From Granulicella sp. dw_53 (lineage in GTDB: Bacteria > Acidobacteriota > Terriglobia > Terriglobales > Acidobacteriaceae), in assembly GCF_018449545.1 (NCBI RefSeq), contig NZ_JAAVUR010000008.1, positions 186,001 to 250,000 of the forward strand: a stretch of 64,000 bases of DNA. The letters are read 5' to 3'. Shown piece by piece: positions 13,388 through 45,898 of the stretch. Numbering within the stretch: the first letter of the stretch is position 1; the number at the start of each line of letters is the position of its first letter. The translations under genes and the position numbers were made by a program. The notes below the pieces were generated by a model that saw nothing but the letters and a program-made list of their open reading frames with translations, searched no databases and was not told where the DNA came from.

Positions 13388-14632
13388 TTAACTTTTTGGG
13401 AGTTGAGGCACAGTTATCGTTCGTCCCTCGGTCATGGCTTGTTTCCCTACCACGCAAGCGATGGCCGATCCAAATCCTACCTCTGCGCTCGCGACTGGCT
13501 GGTGCTTATCGCGCACCGATTGAAAGAACGCTTGACAGGCCGTCAAGGTTGGATCATCGCCGGAGGGAAACTGCACACGTTCTCCTGGCCCACGGTACGG
13601 CATCTCCCAACTGGTCTTGTAGGACGCACCTGTTTTGACGCCGCGCTCGACGATATCGGTGTGTGATGACGCCGTTACCGTTTTTTGGGTAGGACGATAG
13701 AACGTGGCGTCCTGCAATGTGATTTGGGCGCTGCCTTCGGTTCCGTAGATCCAGATCTGATCGGCCATCATGGCGTTATCCGTAATGGAGCTGAAGAACA
13801 TGCGGCGGCCTTTGGAGTAGCCGATGACTGCCTGCACATTGTCGCCAACGGTGCGGCCGTCATGATAGACGGCGATGCTAGTGGAGCCCATGATCGTCTC
13901 TGGTGTCTCCCCGAAGACCCAGTTGGCGATGTCGATTGCATGCGATCCAAGTTCCTCGAGCAGACCGCCGGAGGTTTCGTTGTACAGGCGCCAGTTGAAG
14001 AGGTGCTCAAGCTTTGGATCGTTGACTGGACGGCGCCAATCATCGGCTCGATGCCAGTAGGCATAGACATGGGTGGGAACACCGATGTCGCCCTGACGGA
14101 CGCGCTTGATGGATTGCTGAATCCAAGATGCGTAACGCAACTGGTGACCTATTTGAAAGATCTGTCCGGTTCGTTTTACGGCGGCGACGACGTCGTTGCA
14201 ATCCTGAACGGTGAAGCCGAGTGTCTTCTCGCCATAGACTGGCTTGCCTTTTTCGAGAGCCGCGATCGTGTATTCGGAGTGGAAGATAGGCGGTGTGGCG
14301 ATCAGGATTACATCCAGATCTTTCCGCTCCAGAAGCTCGCGGTAGTCTTTGTAGGACATCACCTTCTTGCCTACAAGTTCATTTACTTCTGCGAAGCGTG
14401 GCTCGTACACGTCACATACGGCTGCCATTTCGACACCGGGTATCCGTAGCATCTGCCGCATGACCTCCCGGCCTCTACTGCCCGGACCGATAACACCCAC
14501 GTTGATTCGATCATTGGCGGCGATGGGCTTCGGTTTTGTTTTGGCGGTCTGCGCGAGCAGAGGCTCGTTCGAGAGAAGCTTGCGGGAGAGCATGCTCAAT
14601 GAAAGGCCTTGAAGTATATCTCTACGGTTCAT
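13388..14632 (-). CDS. Tat-exported Gfo/Idh/MocA-family oxidoreductase
   Basis: A 414-residue NAD(P)-dependent sugar oxidoreductase. The N-terminus MNRRDILQGLSLSML is a twin-arginine signal, so the folded, cofactor-loaded enzyme is probably moved to the periplasm. The Rossmann loop is VGVIGPGSRGREV, and the family EKP strand appears as GEKTLG. The C-terminal domain has LLEELGSHAIDIANWVFG with the conserved His. A strong AGGGGA site precedes the ATG. It is the last gene of a five-gene minus-strand cluster (19173 to 13388). Periplasmic Gfo/Idh enzymes oxidise free or bound sugars, in some cases at C3; the substrate here is inferred only from context. Confidence 0.87.
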   Translation of the reverse strand: MNRRDILQGLSLSMLSRKLLSNEPLLAQTAKTKPKPIAANDRINVGVIGPGSRGREVMRQMLRIPGVEMAAVCDVYEPRFAEVNELVGKKVMSYKDYRELLERKDLDVILIATPPIFHSEYTIAALEKGKPVYGEKTLGFTVQDCNDVVAAVKRTGQIFQIGHQLRYASWIQQSIKRVRQGDIGVPTHVYAYWHRADDWRRPVNDPKLEHLFNWRLYNETSGGLLEELGSHAIDIANWVFGETPETIMGSTSIAVYHDGRTVGDNVQAVIGYSKGRRMFFSSITDNAMMADQIWIYGTEGSAQITLQDATFYRPTQKTVTASSHTDIVERGVKTGASYKTSWEMPYRGPGERVQFPSGDDPTLTACQAFFQSVRDKHQPVASAEVGFGSAIACVVGKQAMTEGRTITVPQLPKS

Positions 14633-14690
14633 GGTGTCCCCTCCGTGCCTGGGGTGGCGTCTGCTGAGGTGCGAGGTTGATGAAGTCGAT

Positions 14691-15722
14691 TTAAAAGTTT
14701 CCGCTACGTACTTCGAAGTGAGTGGGTTTTCCTAACTTCTCTCCGCCATGGGTGGTCCAGTCGGCGATCCATGCGATCATCTGGTTCACGCTGACTGTGG
14801 GGTAGCCGAAGAGTTCAAATGATTTTTGCGCGTTGCTGAGGATGGCGTCTCCTGATTCGACTCCTTCGAAGCGAACATCGGTGTTGAAACGTTCCGCGAA
14901 GTTTCTGGCGATGCGCTGTACACTCATCAACTCCGGACCGGCTATGTTGATGATGAAGGGCGGAGATGAGGCGTACAGGAGCGATTGCAGACTCATCGCG
15001 GTCGCATCGGCTTGCCAGATGGTATTGAGGTGGCCCATGTGCAGCGATACTGGACGTCCTGCTAGTACGCGCTCTGCGATATCCAGGAGAACGCCGTAGC
15101 GAAGCTCTGTTGCATAGTTCAGGCGGACGATGGAGAGCGGAATATCATAGGTGCGGCTGAAGTACTCGAAGATTCGCTCGCGGCCCAGGCAGCTCATTGC
15201 ATAGTCTCCGACGGGGTTTAATTCGTCGGTTTCGAGGGAGCCGCCGAGGTTGATCGAAGATAGCCCGTATATATTGCCCGTGGAGAAGGCCGCGATCCTG
15301 CTGTCGCGATATCTTTCGCTTACTAGTCCAGGCATGAAGGTATTCATCGCCCATGTTCGCGCCTCCTGATTCGTCGAACCGAACTTCATGCCGGCCATGA
15401 AGACTACGTTGGGAGCTTCGGGAAGGTCTACATAGGCCGTGCGATCCAGGAGATCGCAGGAGTGTGTTTCCACTCCCCAGGAGTGGAGTTGCGCTGGCAG
15501 GCTTGCGGAGGTGAAGCGTGAGATCCCGATGACGCGGCGTGAGATGCCGGCTAAGTCGGAGGCGCGTTTGGCCATCCGCGCAAGCGTCGGGCCCATCTTT
15601 CCTCCGACGCCCAAAATCACGATGTCGCCTTCCAGCTTGCCGAGGGCAGCAACGGTTTCCGGAGTTGGGAGACTTAAGAGATCTTCCAGCTCTTCTACAT
15701 CGCTGATGTGCGTTGTTCTCAC
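14691..15722 (-). CDS. NAD-dependent epimerase/dehydratase-like protein (SDR fold)
   Basis: A 343-residue extended short-chain-dehydrogenase protein. The nucleotide-binding loop is DIVILGVGGKMGPTLARMA, followed by FSTGNIYGLS and the catalytic-type YAMSCLGRERIFEYF (the usual YxxxK is YxxxCxGRE, so the lysine is missing). I chose GTG 15722, because GAAAGAAG lies just upstream and this removes the 62-nt overlap with the MFS gene that the longest frame would give. The unusual active site suggests it may not act as a classic epimerase. It sits between the MFS transporter and the oxidoreductase in one operon. Confidence 0.75.
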   Translation of the reverse strand: MRTTHISDVEELEDLLSLPTPETVAALGKLEGDIVILGVGGKMGPTLARMAKRASDLAGISRRVIGISRFTSASLPAQLHSWGVETHSCDLLDRTAYVDLPEAPNVVFMAGMKFGSTNQEARTWAMNTFMPGLVSERYRDSRIAAFSTGNIYGLSSINLGGSLETDELNPVGDYAMSCLGRERIFEYFSRTYDIPLSIVRLNYATELRYGVLLDIAERVLAGRPVSLHMGHLNTIWQADATAMSLQSLLYASSPPFIINIAGPELMSVQRIARNFAERFNTDVRFEGVESGDAILSNAQKSFELFGYPTVSVNQMIAWIADWTTHGGEKLGKPTHFEVRSGNF

Positions 15723-15780
15723 GTTTTCTTCTTTCAGTTCTTCCGTGTTTGAAGGTTCTATCTTCGAGGCGTCACGAATT

Positions 15781-17058
15781 TCAGTCTGGCGCGGTGGAAA
15801 GAGACGGAGGCACCCTGACGGTGTAGATTGCCGCTGCACCAAGGATGCCGCACGCGGCTATTATCTTCCAGGCGAGATCGTAGTTGTGATACGTGTCGAA
15901 GATCTTTCCGGCCATCCATGGGGCTACCCACTGACCGACCGAGTAACCCATAATGAGTAGAGCGAGGAGCTTTCCTAGAGAGCCCACGCCGAAACACTCT
16001 GCGGTAACGAGCGGGATGAGCATGTAGTCCGCACCCATGGCGAATCCGAAGGTTACCGCAAAGCTCCATGCGGCAAGGGGACGATCTGCGAGAAAGAGCA
16101 GAGGAATGGCCGCGCCAATTACGAGATAAAACAGCGCCATCGCGTTCTTCTTTACGAAGCGATCCGCGATGTAGCCGACAACTACACGTCCAGCCAGACT
16201 CGATGCCAGAAGCACGGAGAGAAAATGCGAGGCGGTGGTTCGTGAGTGGCCGTGGTCCTGCAGGAAGAGGATAAAGTGCTGGATGACGGTGTTGATGGCG
16301 CCGATGACCAGTGCGGAGCCGGCCAGAATGAACCAGAAGTTTGCTGTGCGGATCGCTTGACTTATGGTCATGGAGGAATCTGATGTCTTCTCTAGAGGTG
16401 GGGCGGAGGTGGCTATCGTCCCGTCTGGTAGAAGTCCCATGTCGGCGGGTGTTGATTCCGTGACGAAGAAGCCTACGGGGAAGAGTACTAGGAGAATCAA
16501 GGTTCCAGCGGCTTCGAGTGCGTATCTCCAGCCGAACGTATGGATCAGGAAGTTTGCAGCAGGCGGAGCGAATACACCGCCGAGTCCAAGTCCCAGATAG
16601 GCGTATCCCATTGCGCGTCCTCGGCGCAGACGAAACCACTGTGAGATAAGGACCTGGTTTGCGATTGGCCCGGCGAAGACGTATCCCAGGACCTCGAACA
16701 GGCAAAGGATTTCGTACTGCCAGAACTTATTCATGAATCCCATGAAGATGAGCGGGAGCCCAATGAAGGCAACGCCAAGGAGGATAACTCGGCGAGCTCC
16801 ACTCCGGTCGATGAGCAAGCCGGCGAGATAGCCAAATGGCAACCCAACGATGATGAAACCAAGCAGGAAGCCTTGTGTGACTTGCGCTCGGGTGAATCCG
16901 AGCGACTCTACCAAGGCGGGATAGAAGACGGGAAATCCATAGTAGATGACTCCTGTGCTGCAGAACAGATTGAGGAAGGCCGCGGCGACAATCCACCATC
17001 CGTAGAAGATTCGTGGAGCGGGTTCAGATAAGGTATCGTGTGGAGCGGTTCTTATCAT
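15781..17058 (-). CDS. MFS transporter (oxalate/formate antiporter or monocarboxylate-type)
   Basis: About 425 residues with twelve predicted membrane helices in the major-facilitator arrangement. After the first helix (FYGWWIVAAAFLNLF) come the central-loop motif DRSGARRVILLG between helices 2 and 3 and a second copy, IADRFVKKNAMALFYLV, after helix 8. The FYGWW opening is common in OFA/MCT-type carriers of small organic acids or sugar acids. ATG 17058 is preferred: AAAGGAG lies 7 nt upstream, whereas the longer frame starts at a TTG. In this cluster it most likely imports the sugar-derived substrate into the cytoplasm. Confidence 0.87.
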   Translation of the reverse strand: MIRTAPHDTLSEPAPRIFYGWWIVAAAFLNLFCSTGVIYYGFPVFYPALVESLGFTRAQVTQGFLLGFIIVGLPFGYLAGLLIDRSGARRVILLGVAFIGLPLIFMGFMNKFWQYEILCLFEVLGYVFAGPIANQVLISQWFRLRRGRAMGYAYLGLGLGGVFAPPAANFLIHTFGWRYALEAAGTLILLVLFPVGFFVTESTPADMGLLPDGTIATSAPPLEKTSDSSMTISQAIRTANFWFILAGSALVIGAINTVIQHFILFLQDHGHSRTTASHFLSVLLASSLAGRVVVGYIADRFVKKNAMALFYLVIGAAIPLLFLADRPLAAWSFAVTFGFAMGADYMLIPLVTAECFGVGSLGKLLALLIMGYSVGQWVAPWMAGKIFDTYHNYDLAWKIIAACGILGAAAIYTVRVPPSLSTAPD

Positions 17059-17113
17059 CTCCAACTCCTTTGGTTCGGACGCATGCTTTGACTTAGGCCG
17101 CCCACTTCGAGCT

Positions 17114-18064
17114 TTAGCCGTAGGTCTTCAGAATGAGGCGTTCAAGAAATTTCTTAGACCTAAGGATGTCGGTTCTGCGCTCTGCTTCGTTTCCGACCTC
17201 GCGTTCGATCATCATGGAGCCCTTGTAGTTGATCCTCTTCAGAGCCTCAAAGACGCGTGGGAAGTCGACCTTCCCCTCACCGATCGGGGTCTCTGCACCC
17301 AGATGTTTCGGATTGGTCGGAAACTTCCCGTCTTTAGCATGGATCCCTCGCACTCGATCACCAAAGACGTCCATTGCATCGACGGGATTTCCCTTGCCGT
17401 AGAGAATGAGGTTGGCAAGATCCAGATTGACGAATACGTTGCCAAGGTTCACATCGTCGATCATTCGGACTAAGGTGATGGGGGTCTCCTGTCCCGTTTC
17501 GCAAAGCAATACTACGCCTCTTTGCTTGCAATGGCTGGCTACTTCTTTCACTGCTTCGACGGCCTGTGGATATAGGGGGTCGTTTGGATCTTCGGGGATG
17601 AAGCCGCAGTGGGTGTGGATTGCGGGAATGCCGGCGAGGCTTGCGACGTCGGCTGCAATCTTCAAGGCTTGTATGCGGACGGCGCGTGTGTCCGGGGGAA
17701 CCACTCCAATCGTAAGTGGCCCCTGGTAGAAGTCGAAGATGCGGCGGCCGGGGTTGTGTTCGCTGATGGAGGTTGCTTCTACTGCGTATTTTTTGAGTGC
17801 GGCGAGTAGCGGAGCGACTATGTCGGTCGATAGATGCTCGAAGCCAATTTGACAGGTGCGAAGGCCAAGTTCCCGTACGTCTTTGATTACGGAATCCGCA
17901 GTCTGATCGTCGTTTACCCACGCTACCTTTCCCAAGTGGATTGGAGATGCCACGTCGGCTGGGGATCCCAACGCGGGCTGTCCTAGCGCTGGTCCAATCG
18001 CTCCCGCCGCAAATGTCGTGCCGGCGAGTTGCATGAAGCTTCGGCGGTCGAGTCGATCGGACAT
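17114..18064 (-). CDS. Tat-exported sugar phosphate isomerase/epimerase-like TIM-barrel protein
   Basis: A 316-residue AP-endonuclease-2-type TIM barrel. A twin-arginine signal (DRRSFMQLAGTTFAAGAIG) begins at ATG 18064, with GGAG upstream; the frame is open for 17 more codons but those overlap the preceding gene. Likely metal-site strands are IHTHCGF, LLCETGQE, NVFVNLDLAN, RGIHAKDGKF and SMMIERE near the C-terminus. Members isomerise, epimerise or cleave sugars and keto-sugars. The export signal, shared with the Gfo/Idh enzyme of the same operon, suggests the two act together on a sugar in the periplasm. Confidence 0.85.
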   Translation of the reverse strand: MSDRLDRRSFMQLAGTTFAAGAIGPALGQPALGSPADVASPIHLGKVAWVNDDQTADSVIKDVRELGLRTCQIGFEHLSTDIVAPLLAALKKYAVEATSISEHNPGRRIFDFYQGPLTIGVVPPDTRAVRIQALKIAADVASLAGIPAIHTHCGFIPEDPNDPLYPQAVEAVKEVASHCKQRGVVLLCETGQETPITLVRMIDDVNLGNVFVNLDLANLILYGKGNPVDAMDVFGDRVRGIHAKDGKFPTNPKHLGAETPIGEGKVDFPRVFEALKRINYKGSMMIEREVGNEAERRTDILRSKKFLERLILKTYG

Positions 18065-18099
18065 CGTGATCTCCGGCAAGCCAGGATAGGAACCAACTA

Positions 18100-19173
18100 C
18101 TATGGCGCGAGCCATTTATCTAAATGCTGCTGTACAAAGCTGTCGTCGTTGAGATGTGGATAGGCCTCGTAGACTCTATCGATCTCTTCCTTCTGACCTT
18201 TTCCCAAGGTCTCGTTGGGATCGAGGCACCAGATTCCTTCCAAGAGGCCCTGACGTCGCAGCACTTCGTGCAAGCCGGCGATGCAGCCAGCAAATCCATT
18301 TGCAACATCGAAGAACGCCGCGTTGGTATCGGTTACTTCGACACTCTTCTGGAGGAAGTTATGGTGAATGCCATCGGTGCTGTGGACGAGTTCCTGGCAC
18401 TCATGGAAGAGGTGGACTGCCGTATGCGTCCAGACAGACCAATGCCCGAGAAGGCCACCCTTCATGCGAAGCTGCTGCCTTTTGCCTTGGACTAGAAATG
18501 AATATGGGGTGACCAGATCCATGAGAATGTTGTCGTCGTTGCCGGTGTAGATAGTGATATTTCGGCCGGACTCGCAGACAGCACGCATGACATCCAGGGT
18601 CTGGTAGCGATTGAAAGGAGCGATTTTGATGGCGACTACGTTATCGATCTCGGCGAATTTACGCCAGAATGTCGATGAGAGGACCTGACCTCCGACGGAG
18701 GGCTGCAGGTAGAAGCCAGTTACTGGGATGATCTGAGCTACGCTGCGGCAATGGTTTACTAAGGCTGCCTCGTCCCGGTCTTTTAGAGCAGCCAAGCTTA
18801 AGAGGCCGGAGTGATAACCGAGATCTGCGAGAAGACCGGCCTCGCGGACTGCTTGGTTCGTGTCCCCGCAGATCCCACCGATGCGGAGCAAAGGGTCAAT
18901 CCGAAGTAGATCGGCTCGGTTCATCTCTTCTGCGGCGAGTGACAGAACTGGCTCGAAGAGTCCTATGTGGGGATCTCGAATACTGAATTGAGTTGTATGT
19001 ACTCCGACGGCTATGCCGTCTACTCCTGCGGCAACGTAGTAGCGAGTTAGAGCTCGTTGACGCCGTTCGTCAAGACGACGTGCGGCAGTCAATGCAAGTG
19101 GGTGAGCCGGAATCGCAGCGCCTCTTGTGAGTATTTCGCTGATCTTCGGATCCATTGTTCGGCTCATTCCCAT
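18100..19173 (-). CDS. DapA-family lyase/aldolase (dihydrodipicolinate synthase-like)
   Basis: A 357-residue class I aldolase-fold protein, about 60 residues longer than true DapA. The Schiff-base lysine is Lys183 in VVAIKIAPFNRY and the conserved tyrosine is Tyr155 in VTGFYLQP. The GTTGE phosphate/carboxylate loop of DapA is replaced by GVHTTQF, so the substrate differs from pyruvate plus aspartate semialdehyde. No Tat signal is seen, so it acts in the cytoplasm. It is the first gene of the five-gene operon; two small palindromes upstream may be its operator. A 2-keto-3-deoxy sugar acid aldolase or a related lyase is plausible. Confidence 0.8.
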   Translation of the reverse strand: MGMSRTMDPKISEILTRGAAIPAHPLALTAARRLDERRQRALTRYYVAAGVDGIAVGVHTTQFSIRDPHIGLFEPVLSLAAEEMNRADLLRIDPLLRIGGICGDTNQAVREAGLLADLGYHSGLLSLAALKDRDEAALVNHCRSVAQIIPVTGFYLQPSVGGQVLSSTFWRKFAEIDNVVAIKIAPFNRYQTLDVMRAVCESGRNITIYTGNDDNILMDLVTPYSFLVQGKRQQLRMKGGLLGHWSVWTHTAVHLFHECQELVHSTDGIHHNFLQKSVEVTDTNAAFFDVANGFAGCIAGLHEVLRRQGLLEGIWCLDPNETLGKGQKEEIDRVYEAYPHLNDDSFVQQHLDKWLAP

Positions 19174-20044
19174 CCCTCTTCCGAACCTATCTGCGACGTA
19201 AATGCCTTAGAGTTCGCAGGACCCAGTGGTGACGATTCACGAGCACGAACGTGCGTGTAATTGGGTATGACTAGCAGTCATTGGTCGTGAGAGGGATAAG
19301 TTGAAGGATCTCTCCGACGGCGCATAGAAGCGCCTTCTTTGCGGTATCCGAGATGCACATCCGGTTCTATGCCGCTTGGATACACTCAACGATTTGCAAT
19401 CCATAAACGGTCCGACCGTAACTCATCTACCAGGGTAGAAATCAAACAATATTTATCGAGAAGACTATAGCATAGATAAAGTATGATGCTCAGACGCGAA
19501 TGGTATAGCTGCTGCCGGCTTTGGGTGTGGCCTGCAACTTACGCTTGTCCTAAAGTTCGCGGCGAAGACGCGAATAGGTTCGTAACGCCCCTCCGACTTA
19601 CTTCTGAACTGATGACAATCGCCTGCAGAGTGATCCGTTTTGGATCCTATGGTCCGCCCTGCCGATACAGCGAATCTACTTAGCGTTCCGTCGCCAATAG
19701 GAGGACGCGCGAGTGCGAAGGATGTTGTCCCTCTGTAGCTGCTCTCTGCAGATTCTGAAGCGCAAGACCTCGATTTCGAGATTCAGTGCTTTCCGTTTGG
19801 AATATTTTGCGTATTGCCTTGTTATTCAAGAAAACACAGAGCTCTAACTTCATACCTTTCAAGGGAGATCCATGAAATGCCTCTCATGGTGAATGGCAAG
19901 ACCCGAGATCAGCGGCTTGAAGAGCGCCATTTCTCAGGAACAACGACGAAGCAGGACCAACTCAATTGGAAGAATAACAACAATACGGCCGAACTTTCCG
20001 ACAACGGTTTACGCAAACAAGCATACAGAACGAAGTCAAAATAT
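19174..20044. other. 871-nt intergenic region between the sugar operon and the TBDR
   Basis: A long divergent spacer. Near its left end are two palindromes (19243-19281) suited to a GntR-type or similar regulator of the minus-strand operon, and a hairpin GGCGC-N6-GCGCC followed by TTCTTT (19319-19340, plus strand). At 19862 GGGAGATCC precedes an ATG at 19873 that encodes only a six-residue peptide, and an alternative in-frame start for the receptor lies at 19877. Short open frames here have no family features and I do not call them genes. Confidence 0.5.
19243..19281. promoter_or_regulatory. paired palindromes upstream of the DapA-family gene
   Basis: GCACG-AA-CGTGC at 19243-19254 and ATGACT-AGC-AGTCAT at 19267-19281, centred about 25 bp apart and roughly 75-100 nt upstream of the start at 19173. 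Their symmetry and position fit regulator binding sites. No regulator gene is adjacent. Confidence 0.35.
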
Positions 20045-22792
20045 ATGAACATACACTATCCAATACTGATCTTTTCTCTTTACTCTCTTACTGCAGCCGC
20101 GCAGAGTTGCAGCAATGGCCTCCGTATTGAAGGTGTGGTTACCGACCCTGGCAATCTGGTAATACAAGGGGCGCAGGTCAAAGCTGCCAGCGGCCCGACC
20201 GCTGTTACCGATTCAGAAGGTCATTTCGTCCTGCCCTGTGTTACGCCGCCGTCGGCTGAGATCAGTATCGAGGCTCCAGGCTTTGCCCCAAAGACGGAAA
20301 GTGCGCCGATTTCTCCGAACGGTCGATTGAGCATGCGGATTCAGCTTGCTCTCTCTGAGGTTGAAACGGTTATCCAGGTTGGGGATGAGCCAGCACCAAT
20401 GGAAGGGGGAGAGGGGCCAGGCTCTCGAACCCTGAATACAAAAGACATTGAGCGGTTGGCCAACGATCCCGACGATCTGATTCGAGAGCTCCAAGCACTT
20501 GCAGCGACAACGGGAGGTGCACCGAGCTCGACCGCAATCACGGTAGATGGTTTCGAGAACACCAGCGCTCTGCCCCCGAAAGATTCCATTGCCTTCATTC
20601 GGATCAATCCGGATCTCTTCTCGTCGGAGTATCAATGGCCTCCTTTCGCTAGTGGCGGTCACGTTGATGTTGTAACTAAGGTCGGAGGGGGTTCTCTGCA
20701 TGGATCTCTATTTTTTACCGATAGCGATGGAAGCTTTAACGCCACCAATCCCTTCTCTTCAACGTCGACTCCAGCAGGCAAGCGCCGGTATGGCTTCACT
20801 GTGGGTGGCCCCATCGTTCCCAAGAAGATTGGTTTCAATCTGGCGTTCGAGAAGCGCGATATTGATGAATTCAATGTTGTAAACGCCATTACGCTCGATG
20901 GTAATAACAATCAGGAAGCCTTGCATCAGACAGTTTCAGCACCACAGCGGTTATGGGTTGCCTCGGCGCGCGGAGACATGGAAGTTAGCGCCAGCGATTC
21001 CGCGACAGCGTCGTTTGCGGCGAATGTCAACGATCTCGATAATCAGGGGGTTGGTGGGTTGACACTCGCTGAGGCTGGATACACCAATCACGTTAGCGAA
21101 TATACCCTCCAACTTAAGAATACGCAGACTTTCGGTCCAAATCTCGTTCATGAAACTCGTCTTGGATTTACATGGAAGGATACGGTCCAGACTCCACTTT
21201 CGACGGCGCCTCAACTGCAGGTAGCTGGTTTCTTCGTTGGTGGTGGTTTCACGGGGCAGCAGCTCAATAATCGCGACCGCAGTCTTGAGGTCAACGACGA
21301 TATTCTTTATGTGCGCGGCAAGCATTCGCTGAAGATCGGTGCGAAGGCACTTGGTTATTTTGTTCACGACTTCGATCCGGATACTTTCAATGGAGCCTTC
21401 GTCTTTGGAGGCGGTAGTGCTCCTGTGCTGGATACTAATGGACAGCCACTTTCGCAGGCCACGAATATCAATGCTCTGGAGCAGTATCGACGAGCCCGTC
21501 TCAACCTGGCGGGTGGTGTGCCAACCACCTTTCAGATTACATCGGGTACTGCGCTTGTGAACTATACGCAATGGCAGACCGGACTCTATGCGCAGGACAC
21601 CATTAAGCTCCGTTCTAACGTGACTCTCTCTGCTGGCATCCGTTCTCAGCTTCAAACCTCCCCCGCCAGCTTTCTCAACCTGGAACCGCGAATCGGCGTG
21701 GCGTGGGCCCTTGGTAAGAAGAGTTCCACAGTGCTTCACGCTCGTGCGGGTCTCTTCAACGACTTTAATAATCGGAGTACATCGACAGAGGCGTTCCGCT
21801 TGAATGGTATTCGTCAGCGTCAGGCCCTGGTCTATTCGCCTTCCTTTATCGCACCGCTTACTCCAGTACCTGGGTCGTTCCAGGTAAGCACTGTGCGTGC
21901 ACTTCCACATTCGTTGAGCGAAGCCACTCTAAGCGTATTCAATCTCAGCGTCGAGCAGTCCTTGTCTCATGGGTGGAGCATGTCCGTCGGTTTCATATAT
22001 GGGGTGGCATGGAATGGAGTTCGTGTACGCAATATCAATGCCCCCATTGTCGCAAGCAGCAATAACACCGTGCCGGATCCCACCGCAGTCCTATTTGCAC
22101 CTCGTCCCCTTGCTCCCAATATGAACATTCTCCAGTTCCAAAATACCGGTCATCTTGCTGGTAATGTGGTCAGGGCCGGTATTAGCCAGAATAGCTTCAA
22201 GCGTGCAAGCATCAATGTGAGCTATGTACATACGAGCGTATCGGGAAACTACGGAAATGACCTCGATGTCCCTCAGTCCTCGTATACCGATCATGGCGAG
22301 TCCGGGAAAGCCTCATGGGTGGTAAAGAATCGCATGACTCTCACCGGCAATCTGACCCTTCCTCGCAAGGTAGAGTTGTCGTCAGTAATGGATGCCGAAT
22401 CCGGTAGTCCATTCAATCTGACGACGGGGACAGATGCAAATGGCGACGGCACCTTTAATGACCGTCCTTCTTATGCCACCGTGCCAGGGAACGGGGTCTT
22501 TGCTACTCGCTTTGGGCTGCTCAGCACCAATGCCATCAATGGCAATGTCCCCAAAAATCTCGGAACCTTGCCAACGACTATTCACCTTGATTTGAGTGTG
22601 AGTCGCACTTTCAACCTCAATAGAGGGCCGGATCATCAACGAACTCTGACCCTCAACGTACGGAGCGCCAATCTGCTGAACCATACAAACGTTACTGCGG
22701 TTGGTACGGTCGTCTCATCTCCGACCTTCGCGCAGTCTCTTGCCGCGGAGGCCGCACGTCGAATCGAACTCGGAGCACGAGTCAACTTCTAA
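20045..22792 (+). CDS. Oar-like TonB-dependent receptor with N-terminal carboxypeptidase-regulatory domain
   Basis: About 915 residues from ATG 20045, where a signal peptide begins (MNIHYPILIFSLYSLTAAAQ); the frame is open back to 19814 and a start at 19877 cannot be excluded. After the signal comes a carboxypeptidase-regulatory beta-sandwich (GVVTDPGNLVIQGAQVKA) at about 30-110, then a plug-like region (TITVDGFENTSALPPKDS; GGHVDVVTK) and a beta-barrel ending in RIELGARVNF with a terminal Phe. Proteins of this type carry large substrates over the outer membrane. It is divergent from the sugar operon and convergent with the rhamnosidase, so a glycan or glycoside ligand is likely. Confidence 0.88.
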   Translation: MNIHYPILIFSLYSLTAAAQSCSNGLRIEGVVTDPGNLVIQGAQVKAASGPTAVTDSEGHFVLPCVTPPSAEISIEAPGFAPKTESAPISPNGRLSMRIQLALSEVETVIQVGDEPAPMEGGEGPGSRTLNTKDIERLANDPDDLIRELQALAATTGGAPSSTAITVDGFENTSALPPKDSIAFIRINPDLFSSEYQWPPFASGGHVDVVTKVGGGSLHGSLFFTDSDGSFNATNPFSSTSTPAGKRRYGFTVGGPIVPKKIGFNLAFEKRDIDEFNVVNAITLDGNNNQEALHQTVSAPQRLWVASARGDMEVSASDSATASFAANVNDLDNQGVGGLTLAEAGYTNHVSEYTLQLKNTQTFGPNLVHETRLGFTWKDTVQTPLSTAPQLQVAGFFVGGGFTGQQLNNRDRSLEVNDDILYVRGKHSLKIGAKALGYFVHDFDPDTFNGAFVFGGGSAPVLDTNGQPLSQATNINALEQYRRARLNLAGGVPTTFQITSGTALVNYTQWQTGLYAQDTIKLRSNVTLSAGIRSQLQTSPASFLNLEPRIGVAWALGKKSSTVLHARAGLFNDFNNRSTSTEAFRLNGIRQRQALVYSPSFIAPLTPVPGSFQVSTVRALPHSLSEATLSVFNLSVEQSLSHGWSMSVGFIYGVAWNGVRVRNINAPIVASSNNTVPDPTAVLFAPRPLAPNMNILQFQNTGHLAGNVVRAGISQNSFKRASINVSYVHTSVSGNYGNDLDVPQSSYTDHGESGKASWVVKNRMTLTGNLTLPRKVELSSVMDAESGSPFNLTTGTDANGDGTFNDRPSYATVPGNGVFATRFGLLSTNAINGNVPKNLGTLPTTIHLDLSVSRTFNLNRGPDHQRTLTLNVRSANLLNHTNVTAVGTVVSSPTFAQSLAAEAARRIELGARVNF

Positions 22793-22906
22793 CCTCCCAG
22801 ATTGGGGAAGGGAAGAACATTACTACGGAGCACAACCGGAGCTTCTTCGACAGCTATGGTGCCAGCTCTACCTGCGAAGCTTGCGTCGTTGTTACGCATA
22901 TGGGTT

Positions 22907-26287
<3,381 letters not shown>

Positions 26288-26429
26288 TGTTTCCCCCGGA
26301 GCAGTTGCTTCAGCCAAAAATGTGACGTCTCAATTTGAGGGGGAATTGTAACAGTTGTTGCGCGCTACACGGTATCTACCTCTTTTAGAGGAGATGACTT
26401 CACCATGGAAGGTGACCGAATGTTTGCGG

Positions 26430-26462
26430 CCGCGGATGGTGGTTTAGAACACTCATCCGCGG
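26430..26462. terminator. hairpin downstream of the second TBDR gene
   Basis: CCGCGGATG-N15-CATCCGCGG, a perfect 9-bp stem (26430-26438 and 26454-26462), 12 nt past the stop codon of the minus-strand TBDR. No T-run follows, so it may be a weak or Rho-assisted terminator or an mRNA 3'-end stabiliser. Confidence 0.4.
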
Positions 26463-26474
26463 GTTGAGTTGAGG

Positions 26475-29400
26475 CTAGAAATAGACCTTGGCGGCAAGTT
26501 GGATGACGCGGGGTCCGCCAGGGCCGGTTGGGTTATAGGACGCTGTGGGTTGACCCCAATTGGTGTCCTTCGCGATGGAGAGTGGAGTGAAGGTGCCGGT
26601 GGAGTTGTTGTAGGACGGTAGTGTGATGTTAGCGCCATAGTCGCGTGTCAAAAAATTGGGGTGGTTGAGGATGTTGAAGAATTCTCCGCGGAGCTGAATG
26701 GAGCGCCCCTTCTCCTTGCTGCCGAACGGGAAGTTCTTGAAGATGGACGAGTCCCACGTCACCAATGCGCCCTGACGAAGGCTGCCGGGTGCGCCGAGAT
26801 TGGGCTGGCCGATGGTCGGCAGGAGCAGGTTGCCGTTGTGGTCAACGCCGACGAAGGCGGGTGGTGTCTTGCTGTACTGAGATCCACCGGTCAACTGGTT
26901 GGCTGGGGAGAAGAGGGCGTTGCGGACTGGTACCCCACTCTGCATGCTGGCGAGCCCGGAGAGTTGGTAGTTGTCGGTAAGGTAGCCCACCCAGGATGGG
27001 CCGTGGAATCGCTGGTTGAGGTTGGGCAGGTCGTAGACGTAGTTGATAGCTGCGATGTGGCGGCGATCGTAGCTAGCGACTCCGTAGCTGTACTTGCGGG
27101 GATCGAAGGGATCGACGAAGGTTTCGTCAGCGCTCGAGGTAGTTAGGGTCTTGGACCAAGTGTAGACGCCGCCGAAGGTGAGGCCGTTTGAGAAGCGCCG
27201 CTGCACAGAGGTCTGGAGAGAGTTATAGCTGGAGGTACCGTCGAACTTGTAGTACTCCATCTGGCCGTAGCCCTTGTAGGGAGAGAGGAAGTTCTGCTGA
27301 TAGGCATACTGTCCGGAGAACGAATATCCTGCGGCAGCATATTCTGGTGGAAGATTGGGTTCGACGGCGGGCACGACGCCGCCGGCGAAGTTAGCGGGAT
27401 TCTGGGCGGCGCGGGTAAAGGTGGTGCCGTAGGGAATGGTATTGATGTCGCGCGCGGTGACCTGGTGACGGTTGACATTGCCGACGTAGGCGACATCGAG
27501 GGTGATGCCACTACCGACTTCGCGCTGAATGCCCAAGGAGTAGCTGTAAGTGACGGGCACCTGTCCGGAGATGTCGGCACCGTAGATTCCACTGAGGACG
27601 CCGGAGTTGGATTGAGCCGCAGAGGCGATGCCGGCGATGGTCCCGTTGGAGATAGTAGGAGTGGTAACGAGCGCTGGGTTGCCGAAGACGGTGTTGAAGA
27701 CGAGGTTGCCCTGTTCGCGATCGTGTGAGGTGCCGAAGCCGCCGCGGAGGACGCTTTTGTGATCGCCGTAGGGGTCGAACGAGAAACCGAAGCGCGCTTC
27801 GGGCATGATGCCGTTGCTGTTCCAACCACCCCTAGGGAGAGTTCCGTTCGAGGCAAAGATCATGCCGTCGAGGCGGTTGCCTGTGTTGGGAATGATGTTG
27901 CCATCGGGATCGATCTGAACGGCGGTCGAAGGGGCATAGGCGGAAGGGCTGAAGAGCGCGATCTGATTCTTCGCGTCATATTGCGGCGGAATGTAGACGA
28001 ACCGGACGCCATAGTCGAGAGTCAAGCGCGGGGTGATCTGCCAAGTGTCTTGCGCGTAGAACTCCACCTGGTTGTAGCGGAAGTAACCGGTGGGCCGTGC
28101 GCTGGATTGGTCGAAGCTGGAAAAGGCTCCAAGTAGAGCGCTAGCGTAAGGGGAACCCTGGTTGCTGGAGGTGGAGATCAGGCAGCCGGAGGGGCCAGTG
28201 CAGTTGGTGGAGAAGCTGAACTGTCCATTGCTGTTGCCGTAGCTGACCTGATCTTTTCGGTTGCGCTGGTAAAAGGCACCGAACTTCAATGTGTGGCTAT
28301 GAAAGCTCCAGGTGAGATTGTCGTTCGCGGTGATGGTGGTGTTGGCCTGGTGCCAGGGTGTCGAGCCAAAGTAGCTGCCGGGGTAGGTTTGGCCGTTGCC
28401 GCTGAAATTGAAGTCAGGGATCGAGGTTTCGGAGGTGACAGGGTAGAGCAGGGGCAAATTGATGCTGTTAGCGCCGACGGTGATGTTCCCGCTGACGCCT
28501 GCGATACGGGACGAGTACACGCTGGGCCCGACGCTGACCTCGTTAACGATCGTAGGCGAGAGTGTGCTGATGAGATCGACGGCGAGGTTCCAGCCAGGCT
28601 GGGAATTAGTGCAGCCGCCGGTGATCTGGAGGGGGCCAAGGCATTGGATGCCGAAGGAGCCCATAGGGCCGGTCTGGGTATCCTGGTTGCGGACATAACG
28701 AGCGAAGAGACGTTCAGACTGGGAGAGTTGATAGTCGACGCGCCCGATGTACTCTGTGCGGGGGTGGGTCGAGGAGAGTGGGTCCTGACGGTTGTAAGTA
28801 TTGTTGCCGGTGACGTTCGGGAGAGGATAGAGCGCGAGGATCTTCTGGATTTGTGCGAAGGCGGATGCCTGCGCTGCGCTTAGTGCACCCGGCGTAATGA
28901 CATTGCCAGCGAACTGCTGGTGGGTCTCGGGATTGAAGATGTGAAGGTGGTTGCCGCTGCTGTCGACCGACTGTGAGAAGTCACCGTTGCGTTCTAGAGC
29001 GGTGGGGCTGCGGTACTGAGTGATGCCGCCGGGGACAAGCTGGCGGTAGAACTCATTGGAGAAGAAGAAGAAGAGCTTGTCTTTATTGATGGGGCCGCCG
29101 ATCTGATAACCGACGGTGTTATAGCGATAGAGCTGTTTGGCGGTGCCATTGTGGTCGCTGACCCAGTCGTTGGCGTTCATGCCTTCGTTGCGGTGGAAGA
29201 AGTGCGCATTTCCATGGAAGTCGTTAGTACCGCCGCGGGTGGTGACGACGATAGACCCGCCGCCGGCCTTGCCGAAGGCTGCCTGGAAGTTAGAGGTGAG
29301 GACTTTGACCTCGGCGATGGCGTCGGTATTGACGGTGATCTGGGTTGTGCCGTTGTTGCCCGTATCGACGTTGGAGGCTCCGTCGACGGTGAAGTCGTGC

Positions 29401-30107
29401 TGATTGGTACGACTGCCGTTGATGGAGTAGCTATCGAGGCCACTCGTTCCGGAGGCACCGAAGGCACCGGAGCCAGAGACGCCTGGAATAACACGGACGA
29501 TATCGAGCACGTTGCGTCCGTTGAGGGCGATGTCGTTGAGCTGCTTGCCGGTGATGAGGTCGGAGCGCTCGCCGGAGTTGGCTTGTAGTTGTAGTTGACC
29601 GGCATCAGTCTCGACGGTGACGGTGGTGGACTCGGCGCCTACCTTCAGAATAAAAAAACCGGCGTTGAGGTTGTCGGCGGAGCTTAGGATGACACCGGTC
29701 TTGGTGTTGGTTTCGAAACCGGGGGCCTGGACAGTGACACTGTAGGTAGCGGCAGGCAGATTTGTGAGAGAGAAGGTACCGTTCTTGCCGGAGGTGACGG
29801 ACCGGATTACTCCAATGGCGCTGGCGATGACGGTGATCTTGGCGCCGGGAAGAATGGCCCCCGACGTGTCCTGAACGGAGCCTAGGATGGCTCCGGAGGT
29901 GACTTGCGCGAAGAGTGGGGAAGATATCGCTAAGAATAGAGCTAAGACGGCGAAGGGTAGACTGCTTCCTGTCGTAATGAATGCGCTAGCGCTGGAAGAT
30001 CGGAGGATACACTTCCTCTTACAACTAATAGATATCGGGGATGAAGATAGATGAATCAAAATGGCCTCTCTTGCTGTGACGAGCGCTCCGAATCCTAGGA
30101 GTTTCAT
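26475..30107 (-). CDS. Large Oar-like TonB-dependent receptor with carboxypeptidase-regulatory domain
   Basis: A 1210-residue outer-membrane receptor. The hydrophobic export segment ends LFLAISSPLFAQ at about residue 68, so the true start may lie downstream of ATG 30107. Next come a carboxypeptidase-regulatory domain (GAILGSVQDTSGAILPGAKI, about 72-160), a plug with GRNVLDIVRVIPGVSG and NQHDFTVDGASN, GGGSIVVTTRGGTNDFHG, and a barrel ending RVIQLAAKVYF with a terminal aromatic. It is read in the same direction as the rhamnosidase and lies upstream of it (about 190 nt gap), so the two may be co-transcribed. Import of rhamnose-containing oligosaccharides is inferred from context only. Confidence 0.9.
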   Translation of the reverse strand: MKLLGFGALVTAREAILIHLSSSPISISCKRKCILRSSSASAFITTGSSLPFAVLALFLAISSPLFAQVTSGAILGSVQDTSGAILPGAKITVIASAIGVIRSVTSGKNGTFSLTNLPAATYSVTVQAPGFETNTKTGVILSSADNLNAGFFILKVGAESTTVTVETDAGQLQLQANSGERSDLITGKQLNDIALNGRNVLDIVRVIPGVSGSGAFGASGTSGLDSYSINGSRTNQHDFTVDGASNVDTGNNGTTQITVNTDAIAEVKVLTSNFQAAFGKAGGGSIVVTTRGGTNDFHGNAHFFHRNEGMNANDWVSDHNGTAKQLYRYNTVGYQIGGPINKDKLFFFFSNEFYRQLVPGGITQYRSPTALERNGDFSQSVDSSGNHLHIFNPETHQQFAGNVITPGALSAAQASAFAQIQKILALYPLPNVTGNNTYNRQDPLSSTHPRTEYIGRVDYQLSQSERLFARYVRNQDTQTGPMGSFGIQCLGPLQITGGCTNSQPGWNLAVDLISTLSPTIVNEVSVGPSVYSSRIAGVSGNITVGANSINLPLLYPVTSETSIPDFNFSGNGQTYPGSYFGSTPWHQANTTITANDNLTWSFHSHTLKFGAFYQRNRKDQVSYGNSNGQFSFSTNCTGPSGCLISTSSNQGSPYASALLGAFSSFDQSSARPTGYFRYNQVEFYAQDTWQITPRLTLDYGVRFVYIPPQYDAKNQIALFSPSAYAPSTAVQIDPDGNIIPNTGNRLDGMIFASNGTLPRGGWNSNGIMPEARFGFSFDPYGDHKSVLRGGFGTSHDREQGNLVFNTVFGNPALVTTPTISNGTIAGIASAAQSNSGVLSGIYGADISGQVPVTYSYSLGIQREVGSGITLDVAYVGNVNRHQVTARDINTIPYGTTFTRAAQNPANFAGGVVPAVEPNLPPEYAAAGYSFSGQYAYQQNFLSPYKGYGQMEYYKFDGTSSYNSLQTSVQRRFSNGLTFGGVYTWSKTLTTSSADETFVDPFDPRKYSYGVASYDRRHIAAINYVYDLPNLNQRFHGPSWVGYLTDNYQLSGLASMQSGVPVRNALFSPANQLTGGSQYSKTPPAFVGVDHNGNLLLPTIGQPNLGAPGSLRQGALVTWDSSIFKNFPFGSKEKGRSIQLRGEFFNILNHPNFLTRDYGANITLPSYNNSTGTFTPLSIAKDTNWGQPTASYNPTGPGGPRVIQLAAKVYF

Positions 30108-44084: not shown

Positions 44085-44876
44085 TCAATTACTGACCTCG
44101 AGAAATCGGACGAGGTCTTTGCGTTCTTGCGGTTTGGCAACTCGGAACTCCATGTTGTTCCCGGGTACGAGAGCGTCGGGATCGGTGAGCCATTTCTCCA
44201 GTGTGGTCTCGTTCCAGGTGATGTGAGCCTGTTTGATGACGGTAGAGTAGCCGAAATCAGAGACGGAGCCGGAGACGCGTCCGAAGACTCCATTCAGACG
44301 AGGCCCTTCGCGATTCTGATCCAGTGAGTGACAGCCGGTGCAGCGGCGTTCGAAGACGTCCTTACCGCGGGCAGCGTCGCCTTCGGTTGTGACGGATGCA
44401 GCCTGAGAGACAGAGATACTCTGAGATTGACGGGCCCATTGCGTGAGGACGTTGATGTCGCGTTCGGTGATGCGGGTATTCCAGTGGATGACGCGGTACT
44501 GCGGCAAGGGCATGTGGTGCGATTTTGTTTCGAGAAGTATCTTTGTCTTGAAGGCTTGCTGTTCCTCGGCAGAATAGCTATCCCATCGCGAGAGATTCAT
44601 TGCCTCGCGCGCTTCCACGATGTCACGCTCCATCAACCACGAAACTGGAGCAAAGCGCCCGTACAGTGGTGAGCGTGTCTGGGTAGAGTGACAGTCCGCG
44701 CACTTGGTCAAGAGCGTCTCGCGGGCATCTGGCGGTATGTCGGTGTGCTGCAGGATGGAGCCGCTATGCGACTGGGCGTAGAGGCCCGCGTCACCGAAGG
44801 GGTGAGCGCGGGCGAACAACAACGAAGATGCAATACCGATCGTACAGACGATGACCATGGAGCGGGCGCTGCTCAT
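44085..44876 (-). CDS. Secreted di-haem cytochrome c (haem-binding domain plus cytochrome c domain)
   Basis: A 263-residue periplasmic electron carrier. An N-terminal signal or anchor (MVIVCTIGIASSLLFARA) precedes a haem-binding domain with CADCH (59-63) and the following HSTQTRSPLYGRFAPVSW typical of that domain, then a class I cytochrome c domain with CTGCH (179-183) and a likely distal Met in NNMEF. ATG 44876 overlaps the metallophosphoesterase stop (ATGA), so the two proteins are made together. The longer frame to 45173 is an artefact inside that gene. The electron donor and acceptor are unknown. Confidence 0.88.
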   Translation of the reverse strand: MSSARSMVIVCTIGIASSLLFARAHPFGDAGLYAQSHSGSILQHTDIPPDARETLLTKCADCHSTQTRSPLYGRFAPVSWLMERDIVEAREAMNLSRWDSYSAEEQQAFKTKILLETKSHHMPLPQYRVIHWNTRITERDINVLTQWARQSQSISVSQAASVTTEGDAARGKDVFERRCTGCHSLDQNREGPRLNGVFGRVSGSVSDFGYSTVIKQAHITWNETTLEKWLTDPDALVPGNNMEFRVAKPQERKDLVRFLEVSN

Positions 44877-45898
44877 GCCTTTTCCTCCAGCGAGGAGTCG
44901 ACGATAGCGAGATGGCTGTGGCGGGCGATGTAGTTCACCTTGGTGACGCCGAGGACGCTCTGAAGTCTTCCTGCCGGAACTACCATTGGGCCTGCGTTGG
45001 GAGCCGCGCCGGGAGCAGGCTGCGGAAACGCAGTCGAGGCTGCGGTATGAAAGGCGACGTTGCCTTCGACCTTCTGCACGACCTGGTGGATGTGTCCGTT
45101 GAGGACGGTGACGGAGCCGAAGCGTTTGAGGGAGGAGAGCGCCTCTGCGCCGTCCTGCGTACCCCATCCCCACTGTGGGTAGACCATCCAGAGAGGGATG
45201 TGAGCAAAGACGACAATGGGCGTCGAGGCGGAGAGCGCGGCCAGATCTTGTTTAAGCCAGCTCAACTGGTCGGGTCCGAGCCTGCCCATGGCGTCTATCT
45301 GCAGCACATTGTTGAGTCCGATGAAGTGGACGTCCTTGTGGTTGAAGCTGTACCAGCCGCTGCCTAGGATGCCCTTGCCGAAGCGCTCGCGATAGAGAAC
45401 TCCATCGTCGGATGCGGTGTCGTGTTCGCCCGGCACATAAAAGGTCCCGCCGACGCGGGCGGTCTTTACGATCTGCTGGGCGGTATCGAACTCGCCGGGT
45501 TTCGAGGACTGCGTAACGTCACCGGTGTGTAGCAGAAGGTCAGGCGTGTTGGGAAGGTGGTTGATCTTGTCGATGGCTAACCTCAACGTTCCGGTTACAT
45601 CCTGGTTCGCGGCCTTGTTGAAGCCGATGTGGCTGTCGCTGATCTGCACAAAACTGAAAGAAGACGCTGACGAAGCTTTGCTGTTTGGGGTGTCGGCGCT
45701 GGCGGCGAAGAGCTTCGATGTGGGTACACCTCCGGCGACGGTCCAGAGTAGACCGGTTCCAGCCCAGGCCATGCAACTGAGGAAGTTACGTCGGTCGATG
45801 CCGTCATTCGCAGGGACGCTGGTGGGGGTGGATTCTGTGGGCAATGCATCGGTTGGCGCGGGTTCGTGTGCGCGATTGCGATCTTGAATATTCTTCAT
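44873..45898 (-). CDS. Tat-exported metallophosphoesterase
   Basis: A 341-residue calcineurin-type phosphoesterase. ATG 45898 has a full GGAGGA site. The twin-arginine signal DRRNFLSCMAW starts near residue 35. Metal ligands in order are QISDSHIG, LLHTGDVTQ, VPGEHD, FAHIPLW and NGHIHQ. The usual GNHD is GEHD here, a change I believe recurs in this subgroup. It probably hydrolyses phosphodiesters or phosphomonoesters in the periplasm. It is the first gene of a two-gene operon with the di-haem cytochrome, divergent from an ECF sigma/anti-sigma pair across an 8-bp inverted repeat, so that sigma factor may control it. Confidence 0.9.
   Translation of the reverse strand: MKNIQDRNRAHEPAPTDALPTESTPTSVPANDGIDRRNFLSCMAWAGTGLLWTVAGGVPTSKLFAASADTPNSKASSASSFSFVQISDSHIGFNKAANQDVTGTLRLAIDKINHLPNTPDLLLHTGDVTQSSKPGEFDTAQQIVKTARVGGTFYVPGEHDTASDDGVLYRERFGKGILGSGWYSFNHKDVHFIGLNNVLQIDAMGRLGPDQLSWLKQDLAALSASTPIVVFAHIPLWMVYPQWGWGTQDGAEALSSLKRFGSVTVLNGHIHQVVQKVEGNVAFHTAASTAFPQPAPGAAPNAGPMVVPAGRLQSVLGVTKVNYIARHSHLAIVDSSLEEKA

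What the first reader, a model, noticed from the sequence alone, without database searches (positions are those of the whole stretch)
13388..30107. Candidate rhamnoside-use locus with periplasmic, Tat-exported sugar enzymes
A GH106-type rhamnosidase lies between two Oar-like receptors and beside a five-gene operon. In that operon a Gfo/Idh oxidoreductase and a TIM-barrel isomerase both carry twin-arginine signals, while a DapA-family lyase does not. This suggests oxidation and rearrangement of a sugar or glycoside in the periplasm (for example by a 3-keto route), MFS import, and aldol cleavage in the cytoplasm. I know of no described rhamnose pathway with this set.
Basis: partly seen in the sequence, partly recalled or inferred. 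Interest (0 to 1): 0.7.

Follow-up and report, generated by a model that had tools for sequence, protein, structure and literature searches.

The report
Sugar-oxidation operon with flavin-attaching enzyme
A soil bacterium carries a sugar-processing operon that is rarely found beside a rhamnose-cutting enzyme elsewhere, but whose exported sugar dehydrogenase is steadily paired with an enzyme that attaches flavin to proteins, hinting at an undescribed way of passing electrons from sugars to respiration.

Summary
The genes described are present. The SDR-aldolase pair (EPI-DapA) is widespread across phyla. The full five-gene set recurs in one examined locus (Granulicella sapmiensis), without GH106 on that contig.

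In 250 genomes of the class, the 22 with this Gfo/Idh are exactly the 22 with this ApbE subtype; the genes are adjacent in 21. No FMN_bind or NqrB/RnfD protein was found in the window's genome, and only this one ApbE. Thirteen of 23 Gfo/Idh orthologues carry the ApbE motif [S/T]GA[S/T]; the other ten read TSAS or TTAS. Elsewhere in the phylum the pairing persists (17 of 23 high-scoring loci), usually with a DoxX-like gene, but the motif is mostly absent.

Best reading: a periplasmic, flavin-linked sugar or glycoside dehydrogenase feeding an import-and-aldolase pathway, substrate unknown. Flavinylation of the Gfo/Idh itself is plausible but unproven.

The parts
   Evidence: PF02424 E=3.4e-67; next to Gfo/Idh in 21 of 22 genomes
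13388..14632 (-). Gfo/Idh/MocA oxidoreductase (GFO) with twin-arginine start
   Evidence: orthologues in 22 of 250 genomes; N-termini
13622..13633 (-). TGAS (residues 334-337) in GFO, candidate ApbE site at Ser337
   Evidence: motif definition from PMC12052999 passages
14691..15842 (-). EPI, extended SDR lacking the Lys of YxxxK; likely GTG start at 15722 after an AAGGAG-like site
   Evidence: start is my reading
15781..17064 (-). MFS transporter
   Evidence: orthologue near EPI-DapA in 12 of 60 loci of the class
17114..18115 (-). Xylose-isomerase-like TIM barrel with Tat signal (likely start 18064)
18100..19173 (-). DapA-like class I aldolase family member, first gene
19814..22792 (+). Oar-like receptor, divergent from the operon
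22907..26317 (-). GH106 alpha-L-rhamnosidase, neighbour judged not part of the operon's pathway
   Evidence: absent from homologous loci
26475..30107 (-). Oar-like receptor, same strand and 157 bp upstream of GH106

Best explanation
Two units stand side by side: a receptor-GH106 pair, and a six-gene operon dapA-like / TIM / MFS / EPI / Gfo-Idh / apbE. The Gfo/Idh and ApbE form a conserved periplasmic two-gene redox module that joined, in this lineage, an EPI-DapA catabolic pair. Supported by sequence: a Tat-type TIM barrel and a probably Tat-type Gfo/Idh, a dedicated ApbE, an importer, an SDR and a Schiff-base aldolase. Inferred: the Gfo/Idh oxidises a sugar, sugar acid or glycoside in the periplasm; FMN attached by ApbE, on the Gfo/Idh itself (candidate Ser337) or on an unknown partner, passes the electrons on; the TIM barrel rearranges the product; the MFS imports it; EPI and the aldolase convert it in the cytoplasm to a 2-keto acid and an aldehyde. 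The substrate is unknown and need not contain rhamnose.
For: GFO in 22 of 250 genomes and the ApbE subtype (308 bits or more; next hit 268) in the same 22; within the window's genus 14 have both and 12 neither. Adjacent in 21 of 22 although the order differs: ApbE first in 20, GFO first in the window. Across 22 loci the recurrent genes are GFO (22) and ApbE (21); apart from opposite-strand shadow ORFs the next is in 9. Fifteen of 23 GFO genomes have a single ApbE. FMN_bind in 1 of 23 and NQR2_RnfD in 3 of 23, weak; the window's genome has neither. Test on further genomes: ApbE within 1 kb, same strand, in 17 of 23 loci with GFO score 270 bits or more, 0 of 17 below. T-[GST]-A-S-[YF] in 23 of 23 orthologues. 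Aldolase residues Lys182, Tyr154 and Thr60 in 37 of 37.
Against: The strict [S/T]GA[S/T] motif is in 13 of 23 orthologues; 10 have Ser or Thr for Gly. The Asp of DxxSGAT is replaced by Gly. In the more distant ApbE-linked Gfo proteins it is in 2 of 17. L285 has TGAT but no ApbE in the 7.5 kb fetched. DUF2271 and DUF3570, other known ApbE targets, were not searched in the genome. L039 shares the five-gene operon but its ApbE is about 45 kb away. TIM is only loosely tied: of 250 genomes 78 have a homologue, and 8 of the 9 loci fetched for their TIM show no EPI-DapA. Genomes are related, so counts are not independent, and score cut-offs were set after seeing the gaps. EPI lacks the usual SDR Lys, so its role is open.
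Confidence: 0.55

Rival explanations
1. Rhamnoside-use locus as first proposed: GH106 releases rhamnose or rhamnosides, which the operon oxidises, rearranges, imports and cleaves.
For: Physical neighbourhood in the window; GH106 is full length; two Oar-like receptors flank it.
Against: No GH106 by blastp in 140 homologous loci and only weak profile hits; the other five-gene operon has none on its contig. GH106 is common in the class (104 of 250 genomes), so one neighbourhood can be chance.
Confidence: 0.12
2. ApbE flavinylates an unlinked or unrecognised carrier protein; GFO hands its electrons to that carrier, and in other Acidobacteriota to a DoxX-like membrane protein. GFO itself stays an ordinary nicotinamide enzyme.
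For: Pairing without the motif in the distant clade (15 of 17 lack it); DoxX-like ORF in 14 of these 17 loci; DUF2271 and DUF3570 not tested.
Against: No FMN_bind or NQR2_RnfD protein found in the window's genome; no third gene conserved beside the pair in 22 loci; no DoxX-like ORF near GFO in the window-type loci.
Confidence: 0.35
3. GFO works like glucose-fructose oxidoreductase: tightly bound NADP, ping-pong between two sugars, no flavin; ApbE is an incidental neighbour.
For: Exported Gfo/Idh enzymes of this type are known (recalled for Zymomonas; a Caulobacter relative in a search listing, PMC4628093). GFO matches such structures weakly.
Against: Does not explain identical distribution with one ApbE subtype in 250 genomes or the pairing elsewhere in the phylum.
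Confidence: 0.12

Closest known systems
ApbE-flavinylated extracytosolic redox systems (FMN_bind, DUF2271, DUF3570 and others; PMC8238504, PMC11334425, passages and one section seen)
   Same: ApbE gene beside an exported redox protein, [S/T]GA[S/T]-like site, genomes lacking FMN_bind
   Different: Partner is a Gfo/Idh/MocA protein; neither text contains Gfo or DoxX; motif not fully conserved
3-keto-glycoside beta-elimination systems (Agrobacterium OGE, CGE, Gfo; PMC10628242, passages seen)
   Same: Gfo/Idh enzyme plus metal-site TIM barrel
   Different: TIM lacks the corresponding catalytic His by my reading; operon adds ApbE, EPI and aldolase
Exported glucose-fructose or aldose-aldose oxidoreductases (partly recalled; PMC4628093 listing)
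   Same: Gfo/Idh fold with export signal
   Different: E only about 4e-12 to GFOR structures, best matches are DgpA proteins; ApbE partner
DHDPS/NAL superfamily aldolases
   Same: Fold, Schiff-base Lys, Tyr, Thr
   Different: 14-19% identity to solved members, HTTQF in place of the GTTGE-type motif (recalled), longer chain, no NCBIfam match

Membership tests
GH106 alpha-L-rhamnosidase | Full-length Glyco_hydro_106 domain | tested here: met
   PF17132 1103 bits, profile 2-743 of 743
Rhamnoside-utilisation operon | Operon regularly linked to a rhamnosidase | tested here: not met
   0 of 140 loci by blastp, 3 weak profile hits
Gfo/Idh/MocA oxidoreductase | N-terminal Rossmann and C-terminal domains | tested here: met
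   PF01408, PF22725, PF02894 above cut-off
ApbE FMN transferase | Near-complete ApbE domain | tested here: met
   PF02424 1-260 of 266, E=3.4e-67
ApbE substrate | D-x-x-[S/T]-G-A-[S/T] motif | tested here: inconclusive
   TGAS present in GFO without the Asp; 13 of 23 orthologues TGAS, 10 TSAS or TTAS; sister clade AGAT in 8 of 8; 2 of 17 in distant clade
ApbE substrate | Covalent FMN | not testable with these tools
   needs coexpression and mass spectrometry
OGE/CGE 3-keto-glycoside eliminase | Metal site plus catalytic His | tested here: not met
   E, D, H, E invariant but E-T-G where the His is expected; by sequence only, no structural superposition
DHDPS superfamily class I aldolase | Fold with Schiff-base Lys and Tyr | tested here: met
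   Model pLDDT 93.2, Foldseek E 3e-13; Lys and Tyr 37 of 37
Extended SDR dehydrogenase or epimerase | YxxxK active site | tested here: not met
   Tyr 37 of 37, Lys 0 of 37; fold matches SDRs
GFOR-type enzyme | Tightly bound NADP, sugar-to-sugar ping-pong | not testable with these tools
   biochemistry needed

The most novel reading that the evidence does not exclude
Acidobacteria have turned a nicotinamide-dependent Gfo/Idh enzyme into a covalent flavoprotein: a dedicated ApbE attaches FMN to Ser337 in the TGAS loop (Thr in the AGAT loop of a sister clade), so that the exported dehydrogenase can pass electrons from sugars to the respiratory chain without exchanging NAD(P)H in the periplasm; in other Acidobacteriota a DoxX-like membrane protein is the receiving partner.
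Probability: 0.35. Interest if true: 0.78.

Novelty: new variant of a known kind. Interest (0 to 1): 0.6.

Why it matters
How an exported nicotinamide enzyme turns over in the periplasm, where NAD(P) is not freely supplied, is an open question for the many exported Gfo/Idh proteins of soil bacteria. A dedicated ApbE partner makes it testable with a simple coexpression. It may also account for some of the 670 genomes with an orphan apbE that PMC8238504 left without a substrate (section 7).

Tried and rejected
Rhamnoside pathway: rejected as a conserved link. Of the GH106 places listed, I saw none but the window's on the same contig and within 30 kb of a DapA place; that comparison was by eye and the list was cut. 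3-keto elimination by the TIM protein: lowered. A named substrate for EPI-DapA: neighbours vary too much (MFS, SSF, ABC and Nramp-type transporters, M20 peptidase, serine dehydratase subunits, MR_MLE enzyme), so none was chosen. GFO as the flavinylated protein throughout the phylum: not supported by the motif.

Other ApbEs of the class: of 20 ApbE loci I picked and fetched, 8 have a Gfo/Idh next door (7 in the maps; L248 coordinates), 1 has a cut-off fragment (L249), 1 ends at the contig (L237), 10 have none.

Rows left out: 60 of the DapA places were fetched; one search kept the best 80 of 588; of 79 places listed, 17 were the already studied core and 40 of the other 62 were fetched, which include all 23 at 270 bits or more. 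L101 and L126 may be the same record. L039 was left out of the neighbour count.

Literature: searches listed no paper joining ApbE with Gfo/Idh; the library lacks most subscription journals and holds no bioRxiv preprints.

Full report
What is there. The window is part of genome G000, contig 55. Its class is inferred to be Terriglobia (Acidobacteriota) because the closest named relative of the operon is Granulicella sapmiensis (L039). One Oar-like receptor is divergent (19814-22792); GH106 (22907-26317) follows the other (26475-30107) on the same strand.

The rhamnoside link fails. By blastp above 60 bits, EPI is in 66 of 80, mostly directly upstream; TIM in 3, MFS in 1, GFO-like in 14 (mostly 22-40% identical) and GH106 in 0. 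In 60 loci of the window's class EPI is in 44, an MFS orthologue in 12, a close TIM in 1, a GFO of 50% identity or more in 0, GH106 in 0. A GH106 profile over the 140 loci gave 3 weak hits, best 37 bits. The only other complete five-gene set seen is L039 (receptor, DapA, TIM, MFS, EPI, GFO), whose genome has one divergent GH106 gene on another contig. Many flanks are short, so the result holds for the DNA held.

The cytoplasmic pair. The DapA-like family has no NCBIfam match and solved relatives only at E about 1e-6 with a profile; its model (pLDDT 93.2) matches N-acetylneuraminate lyase and DHDPS folds. Lys182, Tyr154 and Thr60 are invariant in 37 of 37. EPI's model (pLDDT 94.9) is closest to TerB and UDP-sugar epimerases; it keeps the Tyr but has no Lys in YxxxK (0 of 37), with an invariant Arg-Glu just after. 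An MR_MLE-type enzyme or serine-dehydratase-like subunits near some copies would fit a sugar-acid route, without proof.

The TIM protein. Its homologues are in 78 of 250 genomes. Of the 9 loci fetched for their TIM, only L197 also holds EPI-DapA, so TIM is a loose partner. It keeps E, D, H and E residues in 14 of 14 aligned sequences.

The periplasmic pair. GFO orthologues (E<=1e-80) are in 22 of 250 genomes. The window's ApbE finds 22 genomes at 308 bits or more in the same 250, the next hit being 268; the two lists are identical. In the window's genus 14 genomes have both and 12 neither. ApbE is adjacent in 21 of 22. The exception, G215, keeps a 56% identical ApbE elsewhere, and so does the genome of L039, about 45 kb away on the same contig. 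ApbE comes first in 20 of the 21 and GFO first in the window, so adjacency outlives rearrangement. Near 22 GFO loci no other gene recurs in more than 9, opposite-strand shadow ORFs aside. The genomes are related and the cut-offs were set at gaps seen afterwards.

What does ApbE modify? In 23 GFO genomes FMN_bind occurs once (inside an ApbE paralogue of G094) and NQR2_RnfD weakly in three; the window's genome has neither and a single ApbE. According to a review (PMC12052999, passages) ApbE modifies the last residue of D-x-x-[S/T]-G-A-[S/T]; loss of the Asp had minor effects, Gly to Ala about halved it, Ser is accepted. Serines were modified in DUF3570 (PMC8238504, section 7). GFO has TGAS at 334-337 with Gly where the Asp would be. 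Among 23 orthologues the site is TGAS in 13, TSAS in 8 and TTAS in 2, always followed by Y or F and an EMPYRG-like stretch. Of 14 more distant Gfo/Idh proteins aligned with them, 13 reach the region and none has the motif, though L089 has DAVSSAT there; among all 42 weaker hits 3 carry [S/T]GA[S/T] in other sequence contexts. In a sister clade beside ApbE in two other families, 8 of 8 Gfo/Idh proteins have NWWAGAT or DWMAGAT in the same C-terminal loop. The aligner places it about nine columns before TGAS, so equivalence is my reading; this lowered the novel case slightly, from 0.37 to 0.35.

A test on further genomes. A profile of both clades gave hits in 64 of 396 phylum genomes. Forty places outside the core were taken by score alone. 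ApbE lies within 1 kb on the same strand in 17 of 23 with GFO score of 270 bits or more and in 0 of 17 below. A DoxX-like ORF is in 14 of the 17; in the ten intervals printed it lies between ApbE and GFO. Seven such proteins match PF07681, three above its cut-off. Against the simple reading, the strict motif is in 2 of the 17 (L290, L291), and L285 has TGAT without ApbE nearby. So the genetic pairing is firm while the identity of the flavinylated protein is open.

Relation to known systems. Gfo plus TIM-barrel enzymes on 3-keto-glycosides are known (PMC10628242, passages). ApbE-linked exported oxidoreductases are known (PMC8238504, PMC11334425), but Gfo and DoxX do not occur in the main text of either, nor Gfo in PMC12052999. 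Eight searches listed no paper joining ApbE and Gfo/Idh. Verdict: the rhamnose pathway is not supported; a flavin-linked periplasmic Gfo/Idh module attached to a widespread SDR-aldolase pair is the better description.

Noticed in passing
L290-L300 and L303 (other families of the phylum): ApbE, a DoxX-like membrane protein and a Tat-type Gfo/Idh in that order on one strand; a possible membrane electron-transfer partner.
   Followed up: partly
L089 8593-10672 (Draconibacterium): A locus with EPI-DapA also has a Gfo/Idh directly beside a DoxX-like ORF; the Gfo carries DAVSSAT in its C-terminal part.
   Followed up: no
14691-15842: EPI belongs to an SDR family in which the Lys of YxxxK is replaced, mostly by Cys, in 37 of 37 sequences, with an invariant Arg-Glu after it.
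   Followed up: partly
L244, L247, L254: Other ApbEs of the class lie near a uroporphyrinogen decarboxylase (L244) and amine-oxidase-type flavoproteins (L244, L247, L254); L240, L242, L243 and L250 have ORFs of similar size that were not scanned.
   Followed up: no
L251 5212-6912: An ApbE beside an FMN_bind protein, a canonical pair in the same class.
   Followed up: no
L086, L077, L092 (Paenibacillus): EPI-DapA followed by serine-dehydratase-like subunits, or by an M20 peptidase and further Gfo/Idh and TIM genes.
   Followed up: no
44085-45173: Haem-binding plus cytochrome c domain protein in the window; a possible electron acceptor, no link shown.
   Followed up: no
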